Assembly (NCBI GenBank): GCA_900317325.1
Contig: ONGE01000012.1
Coordinates: 96,415-160,414 of the forward strand
Source of the DNA: an uncultured Prevotellaceae bacterium
GTDB taxonomy: Bacteria > Bacteroidota > Bacteroidia > Bacteroidales > Muribaculaceae
Reading direction: 5' to 3'
Length of the DNA: 64,000 nucleotides
Shown piece after piece: positions 1,244 through 29,388 of this stretch (positions within the stretch are counted from its first letter, which is position 1; every line of letters begins with the position of its first letter). Position numbers and translations under genes: made by a program. Below the pieces are notes generated by a model. It did not search any database. It had not been told where the DNA came from and worked only from the letters and a program-made list of their open reading frames with translations.

Positions 1244-4200
1244 TTAAAAACGCACCTTGCTGCTCTTCACAGCGCCGCTGCGGTAGCGGGTTACCACAAT
1301 GTTGACGCCATCGAACGGCTGCTTGCTCTGAACACCGGCCATGTTCACATAGGTTACCGACTCGATCTCGTCGGCATCGGCGGCAATCGAGGTGATTGCG
1401 GTCTGGTTGCCCATGTTCACGGTGACGAGGGTTACCTCCTGGGTGTTGCTGGTGGCGGTGGTGCCGTCCACATAGTTGGCAACGATGTAGATGCTGTAGG
1501 TACCACCCTCAACCAGGTTGCTCAAGGTGAGGCCGCGGCTGCTGGCGTCGATGTCGGTGATGACAAAGTCGGTGTTGTCGCCGGTTGCCGTAGCGTTGAG
1601 GTTCATCGTGCCTGCATAGATGGCGATATAGGCCATATCGGGCGAGTAGCTGCTGTCGGTCGAGTAGATGGTGATCTTGTCACCTGCACTTGCCGTTACT
1701 GTCCAGGTCTTAGTGCCGCCCTGTGAGAAGCTGTAGGTTACAGCCGAGGTCTTGGCCGACTTCACGGTGATGGTACCGGAACCATAGCTGGTGTTGGCAG
1801 TGGTGATCTGAACAGTGAAGGTGGCGTTGCTGTAACCCGAGGGAACAGTGAAGGTGATGCTGCCATAGCTTGTGCTCCACCATGAAGACGAGTTCTTGGT
1901 GTAGATGGCACCGTTACCTGCCTTCACGTTGCTGCCGCCCCAAGGCGAGGTCAGCGTGATGCTGGCGTAGCTGCCGGTGTAGTTGCTGCCGTCGAGGGCA
2001 CCCAGCAGCGTGTTCGTGGGCTCGTCACCACCGCTGGGTTGAGCGGTCAGCGTGCCATACATCGTGTAGCTCGATACCGACGATGTCGATACATCGTGGG
2101 TCCAGTTAGCGGTGAAGCTGGTGCTGGAAACGACGGTGGCTGCATTCATCACGGGATTGGCCTTGTCAAGCGTAGCGGTACCGGTGATGGAAACGGTCTT
2201 GCTCGTTGCGCCCGAGCTGGCCACTGCCACACTTGCGGTCTGAGTGCCATAAGCCGTGGGCTTGTAGGTCACGGTCACGTTGACACCGTTGGCGGCATTG
2301 GCTGCCGTGATGGTGGTCGGCGAGATGCTGAAGACGTCTGAACCGCTCTTGGTCAAGGTCACGTTGCCGGTGAGGTTAGCACCCGTTACCTTGAAGGTTG
2401 CGGTAGCAGTGCCGTCAACCTTAGCGCTCATGTTCAGGCTGGTGGGGGTTACGGTCAGCGTGGGAGTTGCAGCGGGTGCATCCTCGTTGAGGGTGACGTT
2501 CTGCTCGTTACTCCAAGCGCTTGAGGTGCCATCGGTATAGAGGGCTTTCACCTTATAAGTATAGGTAGCGCCTGCAGTCAGGTTGCTGACGGTGTAATAC
2601 TTGTTGGTGATGCCAGTGATGGTGCGTGCGTCGGCGTCACCGCTCTCGCTGGCATTGAGGTTGATGTTGCCGGCATAAACCTGAATCAGCGACATGTCGG
2701 GCGAGTAGCTGGCGTCGGTGGTGGTGAGGGTGATCTTTTCACCAGCGCTACCGGTTACAATCCAGGTGTAGGTCTCACCCTTGCTGAAGGTGTGGCCCAC
2801 AGCCGAGGTCTGGGCCGACTTCACGGTAACGTTACCCGTGCCATAGGTGCCACTGACTGTGGTGATCTTGACACTGAAGGTGGCATTGCTGTAACCCGTA
2901 GGAATGGTAAAGGTGATATTGCCGCTCTTGGTGAAGTAAACGGCATTGTTACCACCCTTCACGTTGGTGCCGCCCCAGGGCGAACTCAGCGTGATGGTCT
3001 TGTAGCTGCCGGTGTAGCTGCTGCCGTTGATGGTGCCCAGCAACGTCGTCGTGGTCGGTGTCGAGCTGCCTTGTTTGTTCACTTGCAGGGTGTAGCTCGA
3101 TACGTTGGAGCTGGTGGTCTGGTCGGTCCAGTCGGCACGGAAGCTCGAGCTGGTGACGTAGTTGCTGTTGGGCGAGCTCATCACGGGTGTGTAGGTCGTG
3201 AGAGCTGCAGCCGTTGCGGTACCCGACAAGGAAACGGTCTTGCTGGTGGCTCCGCTGCTGGCAATCGTGATGCTGCCCGTCTGGGTGCCGGCTGCCGTGG
3301 GCTTGTAGGTCACGGTAACGGTGGCGCCGCTGGCTGCTGCGCTGGCACTGATGGTAGTGGGCGAGATGGTGTAAACGCCATTGGCATCGCTCTTGCTCAG
3401 GGTTACATTGCCGGTCAGGTTGGAACCGGTAACGGTAAAGGTCTTGCTCACGGTCTGGCCAGCGGTGGTGCTGAACGACAGTGAGGTGGGGCTAACGGTC
3501 AGCGTCGGGGTGGCACTGCTGCCACTGGGCGGCTGGATACCGATAACCATCTGCTGATATACACTGAAGTTGTAGCTGCTGTAGCCGAAGGAGTTCAGCG
3601 AGCACCATGCGTTACCGTCGCCACTCCAACCGAAGTTGATGTGGTACTTGTTGGTGCTGCTGTTGTAACCGTCGACGTTGAAGGCGTGGCCACCGGCGCT
3701 GGAGCTCACGGCACAGAAGACGATGGGACGTCCAGCGGCCATCTCCTCCTGAATCATGGCTGCCCACTGTGAGTCGGTGTACAGCGTGGAACCGCCGCTG
3801 TAGGCACTGGTCTTCTTGACGAAGCGCGTGGTGCTTGGGTCGTAACCGAAGAAAGTGAAAGCGTCGCGAATGTTGCAAACACTGTCAACACTCACACCGC
3901 TACCATTCACTCCGTAACCCATGCGCTCGGCCTGACCCACATAGTGCATCAGTGTGGCAACAGCGGTGCCCTGAGCGGTCGTGTAACCACTGGTATAGTT
4001 GTCCAGCATGTTGGCCCAGTCAAACGTTGTCGAAGGCAGTGCCGAGTGGGTGTAGCTCTTTGTGCTGTAGCTGGAGACACTGATGGTCGACTTGTAGCCG
4101 GGAACAACGGGAGTAGCAGCTGTGGGGTACTTCCAGAAGTAGAATACCATCGAGGCCGACGTTGCGGGGCAACCGGTCAGACACTGGTAGCTACCGAACT

Positions 4201-4690
4201 TACACTGGTTGTAGTAAGGTGCTTCCTGGTCCCAGTTGCAGGTCAGCAGTGGGCCGTAGGTGGTGGCATTCAGTTTCTGGGGAGGCGTCTGAACGCTCGT
4301 GGGCTCCAGTCCCGGGTGCTCCTGCAGGAACATGATCTGATCCTTGTACTGCCCGAGCATGTCTTGCATACCCAACGGCAGGTTGTAGACATCCCTGAGG
4401 GGGCGGTCACCCACCATGAGGATTTCGTCGGCGCGGTCATCACCGGCGACTACAACAAAGGTCGTGGAGGTGTTGAAGATGTAATAGACAGGTTCGTTCA
4501 ATTTAACGTGACCTAACTCGGCCTTGAGCAGTACTGGCTTGGTAGCTGCAGGGGCCATGAATCTACCTGCGTAAAACTGGTCTGTTAAGAAACTCTGTGC
4601 CTTACGCGCAGCCGTCACCTGGTCAACAGGTGCGGCCATTGATGACATCGCCAGCATGGCGGCGGTCAGGAAAAATAATAATTTCTTCAT
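1244..4690 (-). CDS. Secreted C10-family (streptopain-like) cysteine peptidase, multidomain
   Basis: This 1148-residue protein starts with a signal peptide (MKKLLFFLTAAMLAM, cleaved near AAPVD) and an inhibitory-type propeptide (about 20-140). The catalytic domain (about 145-390) shows the nucleophile Cys174 in LTGCPATSAS, His335 in AGGHAFNVDG and the NFGWSGDGN motif, all typical of SpeB/interpain-like C10 enzymes. Downstream is a unit of about 330 residues repeated twice: a HYDIN/ASPM-like beta-sandwich (LTVSPTSLSF..., LTVTPTSLNM...), then a fibronectin-III-like domain split by an insert containing SSPWGG or TSPWGG and YSPDM. The last 40 residues (VTYVNMAGVQS...) resemble a T9SS sorting tail. 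It is probably secreted and surface-linked, degrading extracellular protein. The gene is monocistronic, with its own promoter and terminator. Confidence 0.88.
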   Translation of the reverse strand: MKKLLFFLTAAMLAMSSMAAPVDQVTAARKAQSFLTDQFYAGRFMAPAATKPVLLKAELGHVKLNEPVYYIFNTSTTFVVVAGDDRADEILMVGDRPLRDVYNLPLGMQDMLGQYKDQIMFLQEHPGLEPTSVQTPPQKLNATTYGPLLTCNWDQEAPYYNQCKFGSYQCLTGCPATSASMVFYFWKYPTAATPVVPGYKSTISVSSYSTKSYTHSALPSTTFDWANMLDNYTSGYTTAQGTAVATLMHYVGQAERMGYGVNGSGVSVDSVCNIRDAFTFFGYDPSTTRFVKKTSAYSGGSTLYTDSQWAAMIQEEMAAGRPIVFCAVSSSAGGHAFNVDGYNSSTNKYHINFGWSGDGNAWCSLNSFGYSSYNFSVYQQMVIGIQPPSGSSATPTLTVSPTSLSFSTTAGQTVSKTFTVTGSNLTGNVTLSKSDANGVYTISPTTISASAAASGATVTVTYKPTAAGTQTGSITIASSGATSKTVSLSGTATAAALTTYTPVMSSPNSNYVTSSSFRADWTDQTTSSNVSSYTLQVNKQGSSTPTTTTLLGTINGSSYTGSYKTITLSSPWGGTNVKGGNNAVYFTKSGNITFTIPTGYSNATFSVKITTVSGTYGTGNVTVKSAQTSAVGHTFSKGETYTWIVTGSAGEKITLTTTDASYSPDMSLIQVYAGNINLNASESGDADARTITGITNKYYTVSNLTAGATYTYKVKALYTDGTSSAWSNEQNVTLNEDAPAATPTLTVTPTSLNMSAKVDGTATATFKVTGANLTGNVTLTKSGSDVFSISPTTITAANAANGVNVTVTYKPTAYGTQTASVAVASSGATSKTVSITGTATLDKANPVMNAATVVSSTSFTANWTHDVSTSSVSSYTMYGTLTAQPSGGDEPTNTLLGALDGSNYTGSYASITLTSPWGGSNVKAGNGAIYTKNSSSWWSTSYGSITFTVPSGYSNATFTVQITTANTSYGSGTITVKSAKTSAVTYSFSQGGTKTWTVTASAGDKITIYSTDSSYSPDMAYIAIYAGTMNLNATATGDNTDFVITDIDASSRGLTLSNLVEGGTYSIYIVANYVDGTTATSNTQEVTLVTVNMGNQTAITSIAADADEIESVTYVNMAGVQSKQPFDGVNIVVTRYRSGAVKSSKVRF

Positions 4691-4968: not shown

Positions 4969-5634
4969 ATGAAATCAGCAAGCAATATGCATGAGGTGCT
5001 GGCGTTCCTGCGCCAGCTCGCCGTCAACAACGACCGCACGTGGTTCAAGGCGCACAAGGACCACTTCGACGCCCTGCGCAAATCGTGGGAACAGGATATG
5101 GAGCGCCTTATCGGACTGGTGGCCGACTTCGACCCGCAAGCACGGGGTCTGGCCGTCAAGGACAGTGTTTACCGCATCTACCGCGACATCCGTTTCTCCC
5201 ATGACAAGCGCCCCTACAAGGATTATTTCTCGGGCGTGATTGGCAAGGGTGGGAGGCACACGGTCCAGTCGTGCTACTATGCCCACTTCGGGGTCGAGGA
5301 ACTGATGCTGTGCGGCGGCATCTGGTGGCCCGAGAAACCTGTGCTGGACCGGCTGCGCCTGCTCATTGATGCCGAGCCCGACGAGTTCCTTGCCATCATC
5401 AACGACCCGGCCATCACCTCACGTTACCGGTGGATGTCGAGGTCGCTCAAGACGATGCCCAAGGACTTTCCCAAGGATCATCCGTTGGCTCAGTACCTCA
5501 AGATGAAGGAGTACCTGCTGGTGATGAATCTCGACGAGGATTATTTCGATTGCGAGGATTGGGTTGAGCGTGTCGCCAGCGACTTACAACCTCTCAAACC
5601 ATTGCACGATTTCCTTAATTATGTGTTTGAATAA
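4969..5634 (+). CDS. DUF2461 domain-containing protein
   Basis: The protein has 221 residues from the ATG at 4969; a GTG at 4960 is possible but less likely. It shows the DUF2461/TIGR02453 pattern: LAVNNDRTWFKAHK near the N-terminus, then YRIYRDIRFSHDKRPYKDYF and an SCYYAHFG core. The family is widespread and cytoplasmic, with no established biochemical role. It sits alone between a strong upstream promoter and the pyrophosphatase gene. The family call is solid; the function is unknown. Confidence 0.85.
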   Translation: MKSASNMHEVLAFLRQLAVNNDRTWFKAHKDHFDALRKSWEQDMERLIGLVADFDPQARGLAVKDSVYRIYRDIRFSHDKRPYKDYFSGVIGKGGRHTVQSCYYAHFGVEELMLCGGIWWPEKPVLDRLRLLIDAEPDEFLAIINDPAITSRYRWMSRSLKTMPKDFPKDHPLAQYLKMKEYLLVMNLDEDYFDCEDWVERVASDLQPLKPLHDFLNYVFE

Positions 5635-17829: not shown

Positions 17830-19335
17830 TCAATTCGATTTATTCACCCTCGACTGGGTTTCAACACTATCGTGACTGGTTGCGATACCCGTTGGTGCGT
17901 CGGCATCCCCCACGATATTCTTAAAATCCCCCCAAACGGGTGCTGCAAGATAAGCTGCTAATGACGCCGCTGGCACATGGAGTGTCGCAGAATTTGTCAT
18001 ATAAAGAATGTTGGTAAAAGTAGATTCGCAACATTTAGGAGGAGTGGTTGCGTAACAATAGACGTCGTTTAGATGGATACAGGAAGAGAATGCCCCTTCG
18101 CCGATGTAAGTGACGGAGCTGGGGATGTTGACGGTGGTCAGTTTGGAGCTCGAAGAGAAGGCACCATCTGCTATTCCTGTGGTCCCTTCTCTTAGTGTAA
18201 TGCTTGTTCCCTCGGGCATGTCACCTTTGTATTCATAAGCGACCAATCCTGCATAGACCCATCCGTCAGGTTGGTTGTCGTACCAAGCGGTGCCATCGAA
18301 CGCCTTGAAGGCAATGGCTGTGACGGAGTTGGGGATGTTGATGGTGGTCAGGCTGGAGCAATTATTGAACGCTTCATAGCCGATGGCTGTGACGGAGTTG
18401 GGGATGTTGATGGTGGTCAGGTTGGAGCAATTATTGAACGCACCTTCGCCGATAGAAGTGACGGAGTTGGGGATGGTCGTGTTCATGCAACCAGCAATTA
18501 ATGTATTGGTTGCCGTTTCGATAATGGCATTGCAGTTATTGCGAGAATCGTACTTTGGATTATCACTAGCTACTGAGATGGTGGCTAGGCTGGAGCAGCC
18601 AGAGAACGCATATGGCTTGATGGTCGTGACGGAGTTGGGGATGTTGATGGTGGTCAGGCCGCTGCAATTATTGAACGCTTTATAGCCGATGGTCGTGACG
18701 GAGTTGGGTATGTTGATGTTAGTCAGGTTGGAGCAGCCAGCGAACGCGCCGCCGATGATGGAAGTGACGGACTTGGGGAGGCCGGCCGAGTCATAGAACG
18801 ACGCGCAGCCGCCGATAGAAGTGACGGAGTTGGGGATGGTCGTGTTCATGCAACCAGCAATTAATGTATTGGTTGCCGTTTCGATAATAGCATTGCAGTT
18901 ATTGCGAGAATCGTACTTTGGATTATCGCTAGCTACCGAGATGGCGGCTAGGTTGGAGCAGCCAGAGAACGCCCCGTCATCGATGAAAGTGACGGACTTA
19001 GGGATGGTGATGTCGGTTAGGTTGGAGCAGCTACCGAACGCAAAGAAGTCGATAGAGGTGACGGGGTAGATTGTGTCGCCGTGGGTAATGGTGGCGGGGA
19101 TGGTTAGCACGCTGGGGTATTCTTTGGAGTATTCATTGGAGAATTTAATGAGAGATCCGTAATAACGTGATCCCATGAAGGGAACGGTGGCGGTGCTGCC
19201 GTTGATGCTGTAGTAGATGCCGTTAACCTTGAACTTGGAGTCTGATTTTGACACACTCTTTTTGCCAGAGCATGATACCATGGCCAGCAATAGTAGGGTC
19301 AACAGCAGTATGGTGGTATTGATGAGATGTTTCAT
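17830..19335 (-). CDS. BspA-like leucine-rich repeat lipoprotein
   Basis: The protein has 501 residues from the ATG at 19335. The signal peptide ends in a lipobox (LLLAMVSC), so the mature protein is a lipoprotein. After a short beta segment (GIYYSINGSTATVPF) come LRR_5 repeats of the form SVTSIGxxAFxxCSxLTxIxIPN, typical of BspA surface proteins of oral and gut Bacteroidales that bind host proteins or other bacteria. A block with NPKYDSRNNCNAIIETATN and IAGCMNTTIPNSV occurs twice, reflecting a 159-base duplication. No dockerin or T9SS tail is present. It shares architecture with the LRR gene upstream. The ligand is unknown. Confidence 0.85.
   Translation of the reverse strand: MKHLINTTILLLTLLLLAMVSCSGKKSVSKSDSKFKVNGIYYSINGSTATVPFMGSRYYGSLIKFSNEYSKEYPSVLTIPATITHGDTIYPVTSIDFFAFGSCSNLTDITIPKSVTFIDDGAFSGCSNLAAISVASDNPKYDSRNNCNAIIETATNTLIAGCMNTTIPNSVTSIGGCASFYDSAGLPKSVTSIIGGAFAGCSNLTNINIPNSVTTIGYKAFNNCSGLTTINIPNSVTTIKPYAFSGCSSLATISVASDNPKYDSRNNCNAIIETATNTLIAGCMNTTIPNSVTSIGEGAFNNCSNLTTINIPNSVTAIGYEAFNNCSSLTTINIPNSVTAIAFKAFDGTAWYDNQPDGWVYAGLVAYEYKGDMPEGTSITLREGTTGIADGAFSSSSKLTTVNIPSSVTYIGEGAFSSCIHLNDVYCYATTPPKCCESTFTNILYMTNSATLHVPAASLAAYLAAPVWGDFKNIVGDADAPTGIATSHDSVETQSRVNKSN
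18451..18609. repeat. Direct repeat copy A within the LRR lipoprotein gene
   Basis: This 159-base segment is nearly identical to 18814-18972, with only a handful of substitutions visible by eye. Copy spacing is 363 bases, an exact multiple of three, so the duplication is in frame. Confidence 0.8.
18814..18972. repeat. Direct repeat copy B within the LRR lipoprotein gene
   Basis: This is the second copy of the 159-base element at 18451-18609. It encodes the same NPKYDSRNNCNAIIETATN block of the LRR protein. Confidence 0.8.
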
Positions 19336-19385
19336 GATGTGATGTATTTGGTTTTTTGTTCTTCTTTGTTGCAAAATGTCTATCG

Positions 19386-19416
19386 CAAAGGTAACTATTA
19401 TTCCTGATTTTCCAAA
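19386..19416 (-). promoter_or_regulatory. Promoter of the LRR lipoprotein gene
   Basis: On the minus strand TTTG (19416-19413) is followed after 19 bases by TACCTTTG (19393-19386). The leader to the ATG at 19335 would be about 48 bases. Confidence 0.7.
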
Positions 19417-19507
19417 CAGAATAAGAAAAACGAACCTAACTGTACTAAAAAGAATGGAATACAACGTCAAAAGCTGCAGCAAGAAGGAATCCGTGCTACA
19501 TGAAAAA

Positions 19508-19647: not shown

Positions 19648-21930
19648 TCAGTCGTTAGGTTGCATGAGTTTTCCGATGAGTAGGGTGACATCATTGATGT
19701 TGACCAAGCCGTCACCATTGCCGTCAGCATTCTCGGCATTGAAATTCGAGTCATCGCCAGTCATCAGATAATTAATCATGCTGATAACGTCGCTGATGTT
19801 CACTGAGCCGTCCATGTTCACATCGCCAAACTCACCTGCATCGCCAACTATTTGTGCGAAATTCTTCCAATAATCAGCGGCTCGGTATGCAGCCAGCGAT
19901 GAAGCGGGAACGTGGAGGGTACCCGAATAATCAGTGAATGAATTGCTGTCACAGGCGGGAGGCGTCATCGCTGCGCAATAAACATGAGTAGGCTTGATGT
20001 ACATGCCCTTAACTCCCGTAATCTGGCCGTTGATGTGCAGTTCGACAGGCCTCTGAATCATGATGGTTCCGCCTCTCCATTCTCCTTCACCGGTCAGCGT
20101 TAAAGAAGAAATGTGATAGCAGCTTTCAAACGCATAGTAGGCCAGCGATGTGACCGAGGTCGGGATAGTCACGCTTGCCAGGCCATAGCAGTTTGCAAAA
20201 GCGTAATAGCCTATCGTCGTGACACCCTTCGGGATGATCACAGTCTCAAGACTGCTGCAGCCCGAGAACGTGTACTCGTCGATAACAGTGATGGAATTAC
20301 TCAGGGTCACGCTCGTCATGAAGCTGCAATTCTCAAACGCGCTGAAGCCGATGGTGGTGACCGAATTGGGGATGACAACGCCCGTGAGGGCACTGCAGCC
20401 GTAGAATGCGGTATTGCCGATTGAAGTGACGGAGTTGGGGATGGTCACATTCGTCAGGCTGCTGCAATCACGGAATACACCGTAATTAATCATGGTAAGA
20501 GCATTGCTGAGGGTCGCGCTCGTCATGCCGGAGCAGCCATCGAAGGCGCTGTTGCCCAAGGAAGTCACCGAGTCGGGAACCTTGATGCTGGTCAACATCT
20601 TGCACCCTGAAAAAGCCCTGGAGGCAATAGTCGTGACTGTGCTGGGAATCGATATACTCGTCATGCCGGAGCAGTATTGGAAGGCGCTGGCGCCGATGGT
20701 GGTGACACCCTCGGGGAGGGTGACGTTCGTCAGACTGCTGCAGCTGCTGAATGCGGCAATGCCGATCGAAGTGACTGCGTTACCGAAGGTCACACTCGCC
20801 AGATTACTGCATCCAGCAAAGGCGTTGCTGCCGATGGAGGTGACGGTGTTAGGGATGGTCACGCTCGTCAGGACGCGGCAACGGCAAAAAGTCATGTCGT
20901 TAATCGCGGTGAGAGCGTTGCTGAGGGTTACGCTCGCCAGGCTGCTGCAATCGGCGAAGGCGCCCGAGCCGATGGTAACGACCGAGTTGGGAATGGTAGC
21001 GCTTTGCAAACTGCTGCAGCCCGAGAATACGCTCTTGCCGATGGCGGTGACCGAACTGGGGATGGTTACACTTGTCAGGTTGGTGCAACTATTGAAAGCG
21101 CCATTGCCGATGGTGGTGACCGAACTGGGAATGGTTACGCTCGTCAGACTCGTGGCACCGACAAACGCATAACTGCCGATGGCATTGAAATAACCCGGAA
21201 TGGCCAGATTTGTCACCTCGGTGCCATTCAAGTAAAGATGTTTGGCAAAATACAGAGGATTGGCTTTCTCGTTTTCAAAATTGATCTTGGACCAGTTGGT
21301 AATATTTTCAATGTTTACGCGCTGCAGAGCCGAACAATCCACAAACGCGTTCTTGCTCACGGTAGTGAGGGCATTGCCCATGGTCACGCTCGTGAGTCCA
21401 CTGCATCGATTGAAGGCAGATTCACCGATGGTGATGACCGAGTTGGGGATGGTCACAGTAGTCAGGCTGGAGCAGCCGCTGAATGTCCAAGTGCCGATGG
21501 AGCGGACCGAGTTGCCTATTGTCACGTTCGTCATGCCGTCGCAGTAGGAGAATGCGCCGTTGCCGATGGTGGTGACCGAATTAGGGATGACTATGCTTGT
21601 CAACCGACTGTCGTAATCAAAGACATAGTTGCCGATCGAGGTGACCGTATTGGGAATCTCAACACCCGTCAGGTTGTTGCATCGTTCAAATGCACCATCG
21701 CCAATGGCTGTGACCGGATAGGTGATGCCGTCATGAGTGACCGTCTCGGGGATTACGACTAGACCCGAATACTCAACATACTGTGAAGGATTCATTCCTT
21801 GATAGGTCACAGTGGCTTCATTGCCATTGATGTTGTAATAGATGCCATCGACCTCAAAGTCGTGGGCCGATGCGATTGCTGGCAAAGAGATTGCCATAAC
21901 CAGAAGTGCGGTTTTGATGAACTGTTGCAT
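19648..21930 (-). CDS. BspA-like leucine-rich repeat protein with C-terminal dockerin-like module
   Basis: The 760-residue protein has a signal peptide (MQQFIKTALLVMAISLPAIASA) and then about 20 LRR_5 repeats (IPNSVTTIGxxAFxxCSxLTSVTI). The C-terminal 60 residues contain two calcium-binding loops, GDVNMDGSVNISDVISMINYL and DGNGDGLVNINDVTLLIGKLM, with the Asp/Asn pattern and F-hand helices of a type I dockerin. In Bacteroidales such modules act as surface or complex anchors rather than cellulosome parts. No T9SS tail or lipobox is seen. The protein is probably a surface adhesin and is the second of two adjacent LRR genes, each with its own promoter. Confidence 0.88.
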   Translation of the reverse strand: MQQFIKTALLVMAISLPAIASAHDFEVDGIYYNINGNEATVTYQGMNPSQYVEYSGLVVIPETVTHDGITYPVTAIGDGAFERCNNLTGVEIPNTVTSIGNYVFDYDSRLTSIVIPNSVTTIGNGAFSYCDGMTNVTIGNSVRSIGTWTFSGCSSLTTVTIPNSVITIGESAFNRCSGLTSVTMGNALTTVSKNAFVDCSALQRVNIENITNWSKINFENEKANPLYFAKHLYLNGTEVTNLAIPGYFNAIGSYAFVGATSLTSVTIPSSVTTIGNGAFNSCTNLTSVTIPSSVTAIGKSVFSGCSSLQSATIPNSVVTIGSGAFADCSSLASVTLSNALTAINDMTFCRCRVLTSVTIPNTVTSIGSNAFAGCSNLASVTFGNAVTSIGIAAFSSCSSLTNVTLPEGVTTIGASAFQYCSGMTSISIPSTVTTIASRAFSGCKMLTSIKVPDSVTSLGNSAFDGCSGMTSATLSNALTMINYGVFRDCSSLTNVTIPNSVTSIGNTAFYGCSALTGVVIPNSVTTIGFSAFENCSFMTSVTLSNSITVIDEYTFSGCSSLETVIIPKGVTTIGYYAFANCYGLASVTIPTSVTSLAYYAFESCYHISSLTLTGEGEWRGGTIMIQRPVELHINGQITGVKGMYIKPTHVYCAAMTPPACDSNSFTDYSGTLHVPASSLAAYRAADYWKNFAQIVGDAGEFGDVNMDGSVNISDVISMINYLMTGDDSNFNAENADGNGDGLVNINDVTLLIGKLMQPND

Positions 21931-22035: not shown

Positions 22036-22078
22036 CCATACAACAAATTTGCTATAATTATTCAAAATCATTGTGCAA

Positions 22079-22103
22079 GCCATCGGCCAGCACTACTGGA
22101 GCG
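22079..22103. repeat. Degenerate REP-like half-element downstream of the HUH gene
   Basis: GCCATCGGCCAGCACTACTGG resembles the left arm of the hairpin at 23154-23212 (GCCGGTGGCCTGCACTACTGC). It lies 22 bases past the stop codon of the HUH protein gene, so the two copies flank it. The similarity was judged by eye. Confidence 0.45.
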
Positions 22104-22124: not shown

Positions 22125-23114
22125 TTACTTGGGTGGAAGGGTGGTGATAGCCTTTGCCAAGTGGTTGAGTTGCAGGCACTGCTCGCGGGTGATTCTTTTT
22201 TTCTCGCTGTGATAGGGCCAAGGGGCGACGAAAAGCAACTGTCCCCGTGCGCAGGCATCGAACTGCTGGCCGCCTGGCTTCCACATGGGGGAGAAACCGT
22301 TCTCGAGCAGAATGATTTCCCGTATCCCTGCTTCGAAGGCTGTTCTCATCACCGCTTTTTCGCAAGGACTGATGCATGGAGAAACCAGAATGGCGCCATC
22401 ACGTGCCATCGCCATGTAGCGGTTTACCTCGTGTGCTATAGCTTCATCGGTATTGATGCTTCGCGAACATTGTACCATGACCTTGAAAGGATGGTCGAGC
22501 AGGAATCGGTTGCCTGCAATGGCGACATGTGTTTCTCCTAAAGTGATGTCTTGTTGGATGGTAAAGAATTCGGGATGGTGCTGTTTGGTCCATAGTCGGC
22601 GTGGATTGTCATGCAGGTAGTTCAGCATGGTTTCCAGCTGCCCTTTATTGACGAGAATCCTGTCATGGTAGCCCTCTTCCCAGAGGGTTGTTCCCAATAA
22701 TTGCCTTGCTGCGGCATTGCATCCCACCTTGAAACCGTTTACTACATTGCCCAGGTGGTAGGGGACCTGGCGGGTAACAAATAGAACCCCGTGCAAGTGG
22801 TCGGGCATCAATTGGATATCCAGCAGCCGCACTTCAGGAAAATGGGTTGTAATGGATTGCCAGCAGTTGAGCACCTGCTCGCCCAAAGCACTAGGAAGCA
22901 CCCAGGGCATGGGGTGATTGTCATCGGGAGCGCAGAGCTCTCCTAGCACAGGCCTGCGACCCTCCACGGTCAAGGTGACCATATAGATGCAGCGGCTGCG
23001 GTAGTCGTGCCAAGCGTTGCGCCGCTTCATGGAGCGGTTCACTTGGAGGCCCTCATGGTGGTCTTTCCACCACTGCCTGCGCCTCTCGTCGCGGTCATGC
23101 CTCTGGTTGCTCAT
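22125..23114 (-). CDS. RAYT/IS200-like HUH protein fused to a Rossmann-like (SLOG/DprA-like) domain
   Basis: The 329-residue protein has two parts. Residues about 40-180 are a Y1 transposase-like domain: the HUH motif PDHLHG (His106, His108) and a candidate catalytic Tyr166 in NYLHDNPRRL. This resembles REP-associated tyrosine transposases, which act on REP hairpins and are usually domesticated. Residues about 195-325 (GAILVSPCISPCEKAVMR, then ILLENGF...KPGGQQFDACARGQLLFVAPW) look like a DprA/LOG-type Rossmann domain; that assignment is my inference from the pattern. No terminal inverted repeats of an insertion sequence are seen, but REP-like sequence lies on both sides. The gene is intact. 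Confidence 0.78.
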   Translation of the reverse strand: MSNQRHDRDERRRQWWKDHHEGLQVNRSMKRRNAWHDYRSRCIYMVTLTVEGRRPVLGELCAPDDNHPMPWVLPSALGEQVLNCWQSITTHFPEVRLLDIQLMPDHLHGVLFVTRQVPYHLGNVVNGFKVGCNAAARQLLGTTLWEEGYHDRILVNKGQLETMLNYLHDNPRRLWTKQHHPEFFTIQQDITLGETHVAIAGNRFLLDHPFKVMVQCSRSINTDEAIAHEVNRYMAMARDGAILVSPCISPCEKAVMRTAFEAGIREIILLENGFSPMWKPGGQQFDACARGQLLFVAPWPYHSEKKRITREQCLQLNHLAKAITTLPPK

Positions 23115-23153: not shown

Positions 23154-23212
23154 GCCGGTGGCCTGCACTACTGCAACAGGATGCGGTTGTAGTAGTGCGA
23201 GCCACCGGCTCG
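23154..23212. repeat. Long REP-like hairpin between the OPT and HUH genes
   Basis: GCCGGTGGC (23154-23162) pairs with GCCACCGGC (23201-23209). Inside, GCACTACTGCAAC (23165-23177) pairs with GTTGTAGTAGTGC (23186-23198) with one wobble, leaving an 8-base loop. CGAGCC/GGCTCG (about 23198-23213) can form a competing short hairpin. GTAG, a tetranucleotide used by some RAYT systems, occurs at 23189-23192. It may equally act as terminator of the OPT gene, whose stop codon is at 23223. Confidence 0.65.
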
Positions 23213-23222
23213 TTAATGGGAA

Positions 23223-28308: not shown

Positions 28309-29388
28309 ATGGCAGATATTACAATTCAAGTTCCCGAATCAGAATACAATTCAATACAGCGACAGGCTGTCGCAGTTATTGACAAAACACGCAACATAGT
28401 GGCCGCCAGTATCACATCGGCAATAGGATCTGCGCATTGGGAACTTGGCAAATTGTTGCATGACAAGAAATTAGAGAATAAACACGGAAGTGGTGTCGTG
28501 AATCGACTGTCCATGGATTTGAAAGAGCGTTTTCCGCAGATGGGAATGTCGGCACGCAACCTGTGGGACATGAAGAAGTTCTATGAACGGTTTTGTGACA
28601 GTGATCCAAAACTGCGACAGGTTGTCGCACTTTTGCCATGGGGACATACATTGAAGTTGATGCAGAAGTTCGGGAACGATGATGAGGCGATTCTCTATTA
28701 CGCTCAAGAAACTATAGCTAAAGGCTGGAGCAGAGACTTGTTGACGAATGCTATCAGTATGCAAATGCACTTGCGTAAAAGCGAACCGACAGACAATAAC
28801 TTTGCTCTGACATTACCGACAGCTCAAGCCCAACTAGCCGATGAGGTATTCCGTAGTAGCTATAATCTCGGTTTCCTTGGTGTTCGCAATCCGATTCTAG
28901 AAACGGAACTTGAAACGAGGCTTGTCAATAAAGTGAAGCAATTCTTGTTGGAGTTGGGACGAGGTTTTACCTATATTGGTAATCAGCATGAACTTGAGTA
29001 TAATGGCAAAGTCAGTCGAGTGGATATGCTCTTTTATCATCGTGGATTGCGTTGCCTTGTCGCCTTTGATTTGAAGATTGGCGAATTCAAACCCGAATAT
29101 GCGGGCAAGATGAACTACTATCTCTCGTTACTGGATCGTCTTGAACGGCGAGACGATGAAAACCGCTCTATTGGAATCATACTTTGCGCAGAAAAGGATA
29201 AAGTTGAGGTTGAACTGGCTCTGGAAGATATAGGTAAACCTATCGGTGTAGCCGATTATCAACTGATTATTCCGCAGGAAGAACTGAAACGAGTCATTGC
29301 TGACGAGGTTGAAGCGTTCGGCAGAGAGGTGCCTTACCGAACTGAATTACCCTTGTTGGACAGCGAGCATAACAATGATGAGAATTAA
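28309..29388 (+). CDS. DUF1016/YhcG-family PD-(D/E)XK nuclease protein
   Basis: The 359-residue protein has the DUF1016 N-terminal helical domain (SAIGSAHWELGKLLHD, GVVNRLSMDLKERFP, MSARNLWDMKKFYERF) and a C-terminal PD-(D/E)XK nuclease-like domain with RVDMLFYHRGLRCLVAFDLKIG. The catalytic Asp and DLK are in place. Relatives sit next to restriction-modification or defence genes and their function is poorly known. Here it is isolated between PorE and a thioredoxin-like gene, has its own 62-base upstream gap and is AT-richer than its neighbours, which suggests acquisition by transfer. Confidence 0.87.
   Translation: MADITIQVPESEYNSIQRQAVAVIDKTRNIVAASITSAIGSAHWELGKLLHDKKLENKHGSGVVNRLSMDLKERFPQMGMSARNLWDMKKFYERFCDSDPKLRQVVALLPWGHTLKLMQKFGNDDEAILYYAQETIAKGWSRDLLTNAISMQMHLRKSEPTDNNFALTLPTAQAQLADEVFRSSYNLGFLGVRNPILETELETRLVNKVKQFLLELGRGFTYIGNQHELEYNGKVSRVDMLFYHRGLRCLVAFDLKIGEFKPEYAGKMNYYLSLLDRLERRDDENRSIGIILCAEKDKVEVELALEDIGKPIGVADYQLIIPQEELKRVIADEVEAFGREVPYRTELPLLDSEHNNDEN

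What the first reader, a model, noticed from the sequence alone, without database searches (positions are those of the whole stretch)
22125..23114. HUH (RAYT-like) domain fused to a Rossmann-like DprA/SLOG-type domain
The N-terminal half has an HUH motif and a candidate catalytic tyrosine like REP-associated transposases. The C-terminal 130 residues contain GAILVSPCISPCEKAVMR and ILLENGF with KPGGQQFDACARGQLLFVAPW, which I read as a DprA/LOG-like Rossmann fold. Such folds bind nucleotides or single-stranded DNA (DprA loads RecA). A single-stranded-DNA nicking domain joined to an ssDNA- or nucleotide-binding domain suggests a domesticated DNA-processing enzyme rather than a mobile element.
Basis: partly seen in the sequence, partly recalled or inferred. 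Interest (0 to 1): 0.75.

Follow-up and report, generated by a model that had tools for sequence, protein, structure and literature searches.

The report
REP transposase fused to DprA-like domain
A gut-type Bacteroidales bacterium carries what looks like a tamed hairpin-cutting DNA enzyme of the REP-transposase kind, joined to a domain of the DprA kind that in DprA holds single-stranded DNA; the combination is scattered through its bacterial order, and here it sits beside the short hairpin repeats that such enzymes are thought to act on.

Summary
Window 22125-23114 (-) encodes 329 aa: an N-terminal HUH/Y1 (IS200/RAYT-type) domain and a C-terminal Rossmann domain. AlphaFold2 models are confident (pLDDT 92 full length, 95 C-terminus alone). 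Foldseek gives IS608/ISDra2/RAYT structures for the N-terminus; for the C-terminus alone the first 11 hits are ShosA and DprA, and DprA gives the top four PDB sequences of a C-terminal profile.

The fusion is a family: 65 distinct fused ORFs (a few partial) separate from 10 plain RAYTs on one 100/100 branch, and the two domains co-evolve (r 0.86). Both are under purifying selection. Ten of 247 genomes of the order have it; in the phylum sample (395) only the window's own does.

So it is a RAYT-type enzyme with a DprA/ShosA-like domain that keeps the ssDNA-binding arginine position but seems to lack DprA's dimer/RecA part. Biochemistry is untested. I found no description in the papers searched.

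The parts
22125..23114 (-). Fused gene, 329 aa: HUH/Y1 (RAYT-type) domain plus DprA/ShosA-type SLOG domain
   Evidence: ORF; AF2 model pLDDT 92; Foldseek
22575..23024 (-). HUH/Y1 catalytic domain, about residues 31-180
   Evidence: Pfam Y1_Tnp 33 of 39 members; NCBIfam REP_Tyr_transpos 39 of 39; Foldseek IS608, ISDra2, RAYT 4er8
22791..22808 (-). HUH motif MPDHLH, residues 103-108
   Evidence: H106 64 of 65, H108 65 of 65 fused ORFs
22605..22619 (-). Candidate catalytic tyrosine motif Y166-LHD-N170 (Y---N of class 2 TnpA)
   Evidence: Y166 64 of 65, N170 64 of 65
22128..22529 (-). DprA/ShosA-type SLOG (Rossmann) domain, residues 196-329, shorter at its C-terminal end than DprA
   Evidence: AF2 pLDDT 95; Foldseek ranks 1-11 ShosA/DprA; profile against PDB sequences, top four all DprA
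22461..22463 (-). R218, aligned with ssDNA-binding R115 of pneumococcal DprA
   Evidence: hmmsearch alignment; R in 56 of 65, S in 9 of 65 in the script alignment; role of R115 from PMC4066776
23147..23177 (-). REP-like hairpin: GTTGCA-GTAGTGC tag and stem with AGGCC/GGCCT
   Evidence: covariance model 45.1 bits, E 3.8e-8 in the window
23186..23216 (+). REP-like hairpin, inverted partner of the previous one (REPIN-like pair)
   Evidence: 46.4 bits, E 2e-8; a model training row
22072..22102 (-). Degenerate REP-like hairpin 3' of the gene
   Evidence: 12.4 bits, E 0.6, third best of 4 hits in the 64 kb window; similar stretches 3' of the genes in L001 and L002
23223..25187 (-). Neighbour: OPT oligopeptide transporter (context, not part of the system)
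   Evidence: Pfam OPT; upstream of the fused gene in L001-L006 and of its remnant in L019, absent from the 9 other loci compared

Best explanation
The gene encodes a RAYT-type enzyme (REP-associated tyrosine transposase, TnpA_REP, class 2 HUH/Y1) that gained, probably once and long ago in Bacteroidales, a C-terminal SLOG domain of the DprA/ShosA type. Most likely mechanism: when REP hairpins become single-stranded (lagging strand, repair), the HUH domain recognises the GTAG/GTAT-tagged hairpin, Y166 attacks the strand, and cleavage and rejoining of REP units follow. The SLOG domain acts as a second ssDNA grip through its R218-centred face, holding or delivering the flanking single strand. Shown here by computation: the architecture, conservation of the active-site residues, the DprA-type fold, a joint history of the two domains, purifying selection, and REP-like hairpins at the gene and elsewhere in the genome. 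Inferred: cleavage, REP specificity, ssDNA binding by the SLOG domain, and any benefit to the host.
For: Fold and sequence. Bridge family of stand-alone SLOG proteins: hhalign probability 97.4, E 1.2e-11; four of these seven were scanned with Pfam and all four match DNA_processg_A (E 1.8e-6 to 8.4e-5, below cut-off); three were scanned with PADLOC and all three match PsyrA. Active-site residues kept in 64-65 of 65 fused ORFs. Fused (65) and plain (10) RAYT rows split on one branch, 100/100. N- and C-domain distances correlate, r 0.86, permutation maximum 0.26 of 1000. dN/dS low in both domains. REPs: the best three of four model hits in 64 kb adjoin the gene; 22 hits at E<=0.01 in the genome, 12 of the model's 31 training rows being from this genome; 17 of the 22 outside ORFs of 100 aa or more (15 of the 20 examined, plus the 2 beside the gene). 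Flank-to-flank repeats beyond the null's 99th percentile in 19 of 61 fused genes.
Against: No biochemistry. REPs flank only 2 of the 4 fused genes of this genome convincingly (the model finds none beside the C40 and C17 copies). In the two other flank families tested the repeat was found at the gene only (G122; G002/G070). Three fused-gene genomes of the genus (G040, G060, G122) have no match to the REP pattern, and so has the one genus member without the gene (G109), so presence of the gene and of these REPs do not track each other there. 42 of 61 fused genes show no flank repeat beyond the null, and near-identical relatives among the 19 count more than once. The 3' REP of the window gene is degenerate. 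R218 is S in 9 of 65 aligned ORFs. hhalign of the C-terminal profile with the genome's own DprA alone is weak (E 0.024, probability 2). The stem pair counts come from rows chosen for pairing.
Confidence: 0.62

Rival explanations
1. RAYT-type enzyme in which the SLOG domain is a structural or dimerisation module, or a docking site for host replication or repair proteins, and does not itself bind ssDNA.
For: Y1 enzymes work as dimers (recalled), so an added dimer module would make sense. The most conserved C-terminal residues (N202, I248, E252, N317) could be structural.
Against: The part of DprA that makes its dimer (residues among 249-275 in the pneumococcal protein; PMC4066776 passages) seems to be missing here. 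R218 (R in 56 of 65) and K279 (K in 60 of 65) are kept on what would be DprA's ssDNA face (R218; K279 inferred).
Confidence: 0.2
2. Nucleotide- or ligand-gated nickase: the SLOG domain senses a nucleotide signal or stress and switches the HUH domain, as the SLOG domain does in Thoeris ThsA, or works in a ShosTA/PsyrTA-like conflict setting.
For: Closest solved fold is ShosA; the three stand-alone relatives scanned hit PADLOC PsyrA and 4 of 35 fused C-termini do so weakly; several stand-alone relatives sit beside restriction- or helicase-like ORFs (by eye).
Against: The window gene's neighbours are an OPT transporter and BspA-like repeat proteins, with no defence gene recognised beside it (only some window ORFs were scanned); PADLOC gives nothing for the window protein or its C-terminus; the last segment of the SLOG fold is missing.
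Confidence: 0.1
3. A selfish IS200/IS605-type element whose ends are the flanking repeats.
For: Two paralogues in this genome (C40, C17) are nearest to genes of other families (81% and 68% protein identity), suggesting horizontal movement; in G122 and G002/G070 the flank repeats were found at the gene only, as IS ends would be.
Against: No near-identical copies in the genome: best paralogue 49%; same OPT neighbour in six relatives; no TnpB noticed beside it (by eye, not searched); Y---N rather than Y---Q motif; no plasmid or phage match to the C-terminal domain at E<=0.001.
Confidence: 0.05
4. A RecA-loading mediator of natural transformation, as DprA is.
For: DprA-type fold.
Against: The genome has its own DprA on C14 (372 aa); the fused domain seems to lack the RecA/dimer part of DprA (inferred).
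Confidence: 0.03

Closest known systems
RAYT / TnpA_REP (class 2 Y1 transposases; E. coli structure 4er8)
   Same: HUH, single tyrosine, Y---NP motif, GTAG-tagged hairpins beside the gene and elsewhere in the genome, few and divergent copies
   Different: Carries a whole DprA-type domain; Y[LIV]xDNP and mostly DHxH differ from the Bacteroidetes subclasses 2.4 and 2.6 tabulated by Quentin 2018; REPs few (22 at E<=0.01) and partly GTAT-tagged; 42 of 61 fused genes without a flank repeat beyond the null
DprA (PF02481; 3uqz, 4ljk)
   Same: Rossmann/SLOG fold, GN-LL lead-in, arginine aligned with R115, colinear strands and RN-R region
   Different: No match over the Pfam cut-off seen; shorter C-terminal end; fused to an HUH domain; DprA's usual extra domains absent (recalled)
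ShosA / PsyrA (DprA-like partner of ShosTA/PsyrTA; 8zva)
   Same: Best Foldseek hit of the C-terminal domain (TMq 0.72)
   Different: No toxin partner recognised beside the gene; HUH fusion
Stand-alone ~156-196 aa SLOG proteins of Bacteroidota (L136-L142; two of the seven from the same order)
   Same: Closest sequence relatives of the C-terminal domain (hhalign E 1.2e-11)
   Different: Not fused; keep a last strand and a GG motif that the fused form lacks
IS608/ISDra2 TnpA (IS200/IS605)
   Same: HUH/Y1 core fold
   Different: Y---Q motif and high, near-identical copy number are theirs (PMC6006769); tnpB is often beside them

Membership tests
RAYT / TnpA_REP | HUH motif and one catalytic tyrosine in a Y1 fold | tested here: met
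   (residues and fold; catalysis not tested)
RAYT / TnpA_REP | Class 2 Y---NP motif rather than Y---Q | tested here: met
   YLHDNP; N170 in 64 of 65, P171 in 63 of 65; motif classes from PMC6006769
[quoted passage not shown]
   Inverted pair 5' of the window gene, degenerate hairpin 3'; pairs on both sides of the C25 copy but with GTAT; none by the model at the C40 and C17 copies; 19 of 61 fused genes have matching flanks. Definitions:
RAYT / TnpA_REP | Cognate REPs dispersed and extragenic in the genome | tested here: inconclusive
   In the window's genome yes: 22 hits at E<=0.01, 17 of 22 outside ORFs of 100 aa or more (plus window). Not in G122 or G002/G070 for their own flank repeats
RAYT / TnpA_REP | NCBIfam REP_Tyr_transpos above cut-off | tested here: not met
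   34.7 bits against 80; I claim a RAYT-type variant, not that equivalog
RAYT / TnpA_REP | Cleavage and rejoining of REP ssDNA | not testable with these tools
   Needs purified protein
DprA (DNA_processg_A) | DprA-type Rossmann fold | tested here: met
DprA (DNA_processg_A) | Pfam PF02481 above cut-off | tested here: not met
   2 of 39 members match at E<=0.1, best E 0.029
DprA (DNA_processg_A) | Dimer zone and RecA contacts in the C-terminal part of the Rossmann domain | tested here: inconclusive
   Alignment ends after the RN-R helix; residue numbers from PMC4066776; no superposition made
IS200/IS605 insertion sequence | Near-identical copies in the genome | tested here: not met
   Best paralogue 49% identical
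IS200/IS605 insertion sequence | tnpB neighbour | not tested
   None noticed by eye among the ORFs; no TnpB search was run (and not all members have one)
ShosTA/PsyrTA | Two-gene system with a toxin partner | tested here: inconclusive
   The two flanking genes are OPT and a BspA-like repeat protein; no toxin model was searched

The most novel reading that the evidence does not exclude
A Bacteroidales system in which a RAYT has been turned into a two-site ssDNA enzyme: the HUH domain nicks and joins REP hairpins while a trimmed DprA/ShosA-type SLOG domain captures the flanking single strand (or a nucleotide signal) and decides where or when the nick is made, giving RAYTs a host function such as processing of stalled-fork or incoming single strands.
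Probability: 0.3. Interest if true: 0.8.

Novelty: new variant of a known kind. Interest (0 to 1): 0.6.

Why it matters
What RAYTs do for the cells that keep them is, to my knowledge, an open question. Here selection has kept a second, DprA-like domain on a transposase-type protein in many members of a bacterial order and constrains it about as tightly as the catalytic domain. That makes the question testable: remove or mutate either half and ask what happens to REP hairpins, ssDNA and the cell. It also extends RAYT architecture beyond the HTH/DnaA-like tails described in 2018 (PMC6006769) and, as far as I found, adds a DNA-nicking partner to the known settings of the SLOG fold.

Tried and rejected
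Plain IS200/IS605 element: set aside for lack of near-identical copies. Chance Rossmann-like motif: rejected by models, Foldseek and profiles. RecA loader: considered unlikely. A single-sequence PDB search gave only a chain named SHRT_binder at E 0.57, so profiles were needed. Own DprA against the C-terminal profile by hhalign was weak. A profile of the seven stand-alone proteins against PDB at E<=0.01 gave nothing. REP counts as a correlate of the gene across genera were abandoned: each gene seems to have its own hairpin and the pattern was tuned to the window's; 54 of 149 genomes have at least one pattern match, mostly one, with the reversed control matching in some too. The stand-alone SLOG of G285 with a separate HUH ORF about 570 bp downstream, and that of G163 with a Y1-like ORF about 1.7 kb downstream, were considered as unfused pairs, but only 2 of 7 stand-alone loci show this and both HUH ORFs look like other RAYT kinds (by eye); taken as chance. 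Plasmid and phage searches with the C-terminal domain: no match at E<=0.001. Viral contigs were not searched.

Full report
WHAT IS THERE. The ORF at 22125-23114 (-) is real, 329 aa. Pfam and NCBIfam give only sub-threshold Y1_Tnp and REP_Tyr_transpos matches for the N-terminus; for the C-terminus there is nothing beyond a sub-threshold InhA-like_MAM match over residues 181-235 (E 0.12). One scan of genome contigs found 19 loci, in records titled Muribaculaceae, Prevotellaceae or Bacteroidales, from goat, roe deer and water buffalo samples among others: 18 with longer matches at 36-93% identity (L014 is cut by its contig's end) and one (L019) with only 26 residues. The window's own genome (G000) has four such genes, on C32 (this one), C25, C40 and C17, the best other being 49% identical, plus one plain Y1 transposase and one DprA over the Pfam cut-off. 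The host is inferred from record titles of relatives.

FOLD. An alignment of 39 members, chosen from the loci then in hand with most near-duplicates left out, gave an AlphaFold2 model with mean pLDDT 92.3. Foldseek against the PDB finds IS608/ISDra2 TnpA and the E. coli RAYT with its REP hairpin (4er8, E 1.1e-5, rmsd 2.3) for the N-terminal half, and also ShosA (E 9.4e-6) and DprA chains (E about 1e-3 to 1e-2). The C-terminal 134 residues alone (35 of the 39 rows aligned; pLDDT 95.3) give ShosA first and DprA chains at ranks 2-11, probability 1.00, TMq 0.64-0.72; LOG-type YvdD comes at rank 33. E-values are modest (best 1.2e-3), but the first 11 ranks agree. By sequence, the profile of the 35 C-termini has DprA as its four best PDB sequences (E 0.0011 to 0.018), ahead of hits to other proteins at 0.22 and above.

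BRIDGE. In the phylum sample the other matches to the C-terminal profile are five stand-alone ORFs of 157-196 aa and two of 675-676 aa; I read the 675-aa one by eye as a double-SLOG protein. Two genomes of the order sample have stand-alone ORFs of 156 aa as well. Seven stand-alone ones were aligned; hhalign to the fused C-termini gives probability 97.4, E 1.2e-11. Four of the seven were scanned with Pfam: all four match DNA_processg_A below its cut-off. Three were scanned with PADLOC: all three match PsyrA. Four of 35 fused C-termini match PsyrA weakly, the window's not. The alignment with the genome's own DprA is weak alone (E 0.024, probability 2) but colinear: AILVSP with LIVVSG, EIILL with TVAVL, LLFVAPW with LLTDY, and N317 with the N of DprA's RN-R.

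WHAT THE SLOG DOMAIN KEEPS. R218 aligns with R115 of pneumococcal DprA, shown in print to contribute to ssDNA binding (PMC4066776, passages only). It is R in 56 of 65 fused ORFs and S in 9 in the script alignment, which may be misaligned there. K279 is K in 60 of 65; N317 is N in all 62 without a gap. The window protein ends 12 residues after N317; DprA and the stand-alone relatives continue with another strand. The dimer zone (residues among 249-275) and RecA contacts (E235, M238, D243, E265) of pneumococcal DprA lie, as I infer from the alignment, mostly in that missing part, so a RecA-loading role is unlikely. This was not checked by superposition.

HISTORY OF THE FUSION. In the order sample 14 of 247 genomes match the C-terminal profile; 10 of them (own included) hold both domains in one ORF, in 7 family groups; one has the two parts in separate ORFs (G022), two have stand-alone proteins, and one has a 419-aa ORF without an HUH match. 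In the phylum sample 8 of 395 match, the own genome being the only one with a fusion; that sample holds few genomes of the order. In the family sample 50 of 149 genomes match the full-length query; some weak matches are plain RAYTs. On the HUH tree 65 fused rows (some partial, such as L012) and 10 unfused rows (nine from the family, one from elsewhere in the phylum) are split by one branch with 100/100 support; three short rows were dropped before (L137, L040, L151) and three fragments left out (L014, L110, L146), long branches are flagged by the program, and the root is unknown, so one origin is consistent with the tree rather than proved. Pairwise distances of the two domains correlate at r 0.86 over 65 ORFs against a permutation maximum of 0.26 in 1000. 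Two paralogues of the window's genome (C40, C17) are nearest to genes of other families (81% and 68% identity), so some copies probably moved horizontally.

SELECTION AND SYNTENY. Over the 15 pairs of window, L001-L004 and L006 dN/dS is 0.05-0.14 for HUH and 0.03-0.09 for SLOG. The gene follows the same OPT transporter gene in L001-L006, 6 of 6 (the L005 copy has an early stop codon in its N-terminal part); the nine more distant loci compared lack that neighbour. In L019 an internal stretch is gone, leaving the first 26 codons, the last codons and the upstream hairpin beside the same neighbours; so the gene can be lost, with the caution that this is a metagenome-type assembly.

HAIRPINS. Just 5' of the gene lie two inverted hairpins, each a GTTGnnGTAGTGC tag with a 6-7 bp stem and 3-nt loop. 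They recur, with stem changes on both sides, upstream of the genes in L001-L004 and L006, with one of the pair recognised in L005. At the C25 copy inverted pairs of a GTAT-tagged version flank both sides. A covariance model from 31 hairpins (12 from this genome) finds in the 64 kb window two strong hits and a degenerate one, all at this gene, and one chance-level hit elsewhere. In the genome it finds 28 hits at E<=1 and 22 at E<=0.01, with 150 of 2011 first-look candidates scored. Of the 22, 17 lie outside ORFs of 100 aa or more (crude ORF calls by script); four lie in one tandem array overlapped only by a 115-aa ORF and one in a 340-aa ORF (plus the window). A plain pattern gives 21 matches in G000 against 0 for its reversed control, 8 in G135 and 0-5 in the other eight genus members, among them three with the gene and none of the pattern. 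The pair counts (27 of 217 cells changed on both sides) come from rows that my script chose for pairing, so they are not independent proof.

FLANKS FAMILY-WIDE. From 80 fused ORFs, 61 remained after dropping duplicates and flanks under 200 bases; their upstream and downstream flanks (up to 350 bases) were compared. 19 of 61 score above the 99th percentile of mismatched pairs; at a score of 18 or more it is 18 of 61 against 2 of 482. Many of these are hairpins of other sequence; a few look like other repeats, and near relatives count more than once. In two families tested (G122; G002/G070) the flank repeat was found at the gene only. So a REPtron-like arrangement is common but not universal, and a dispersed REP set is shown only for the window's genome.

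NOVELTY. Quentin 2018 (PMC6006769; abstract, outline, passages and section 11 seen; supplements not) describes HTH and DnaA-like C-terminal additions but has no occurrence of DprA, SLOG, Smf or Rossmann in its main text. Nunvar 2010 (PMC2817692, passages) defines RAYTs by inverted flanking REPs. Full-text searches for RAYT with DprA, SLOG with transposase and HUH, and DprA with Y1_Tnp returned no paper; tyrosine transposase/DprA/fusion/HUH (three of four) returned only Quentin 2018; SLOG/DprA/Y1 transposase (two of three) listed 16 papers whose listing showed none on such a fusion (listing only). Most subscription papers and bioRxiv preprints are not in that library, so 'undescribed' is limited to it.

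VERDICT. A RAYT-type enzyme with a DprA/ShosA-type SLOG domain: architecture near-certain, RAYT-like action likely, the SLOG domain's exact task open.

Noticed in passing
L019 4880-5420: Internal deletion of the fused gene in one relative leaves its first 26 codons, its last codons and the upstream hairpin; similar short stretches at the two ends suggest deletion between them (by eye).
   Followed up: partly
L136-L142: Stand-alone DprA/PsyrA-like SLOG proteins of about 156-196 aa in other Bacteroidota genomes, several beside restriction-, helicase- or AlbA/Schlafen-like ORFs (by eye).
   Followed up: partly
L056/L132 (G426) and L134 (G540): 675-676 aa ORFs whose second half matches the C-terminal SLOG domain; the 675-aa one looks by eye like two SLOG domains in tandem.
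   Followed up: no
G000 C40 and C17 (L022, L024): Two paralogues of the fused gene are closer to genes of other families of the order than to the window's gene, suggesting horizontal transfer.
   Followed up: partly
L005 about 4990-5060: The orthologue in L005 has an early stop codon in its N-terminal part, upstream of the HUH domain.
   Followed up: no
window 28309-29388: YhcG/DUF1016 PDDEXK nuclease gene.
   Followed up: no
window 19648-21930 and 17830-19482: BspA-like leucine-rich repeat proteins; the first ends in a dockerin-type-I-like domain.
   Followed up: no
window 1244-4690: C10 peptidase with a Spi-type inhibitor domain.
   Followed up: no
L164 1467-1643 (G000 C12:7766-7942): Four REP-like hairpins in one orientation at 48-49 bp spacing, a small tandem array.
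   Followed up: partly
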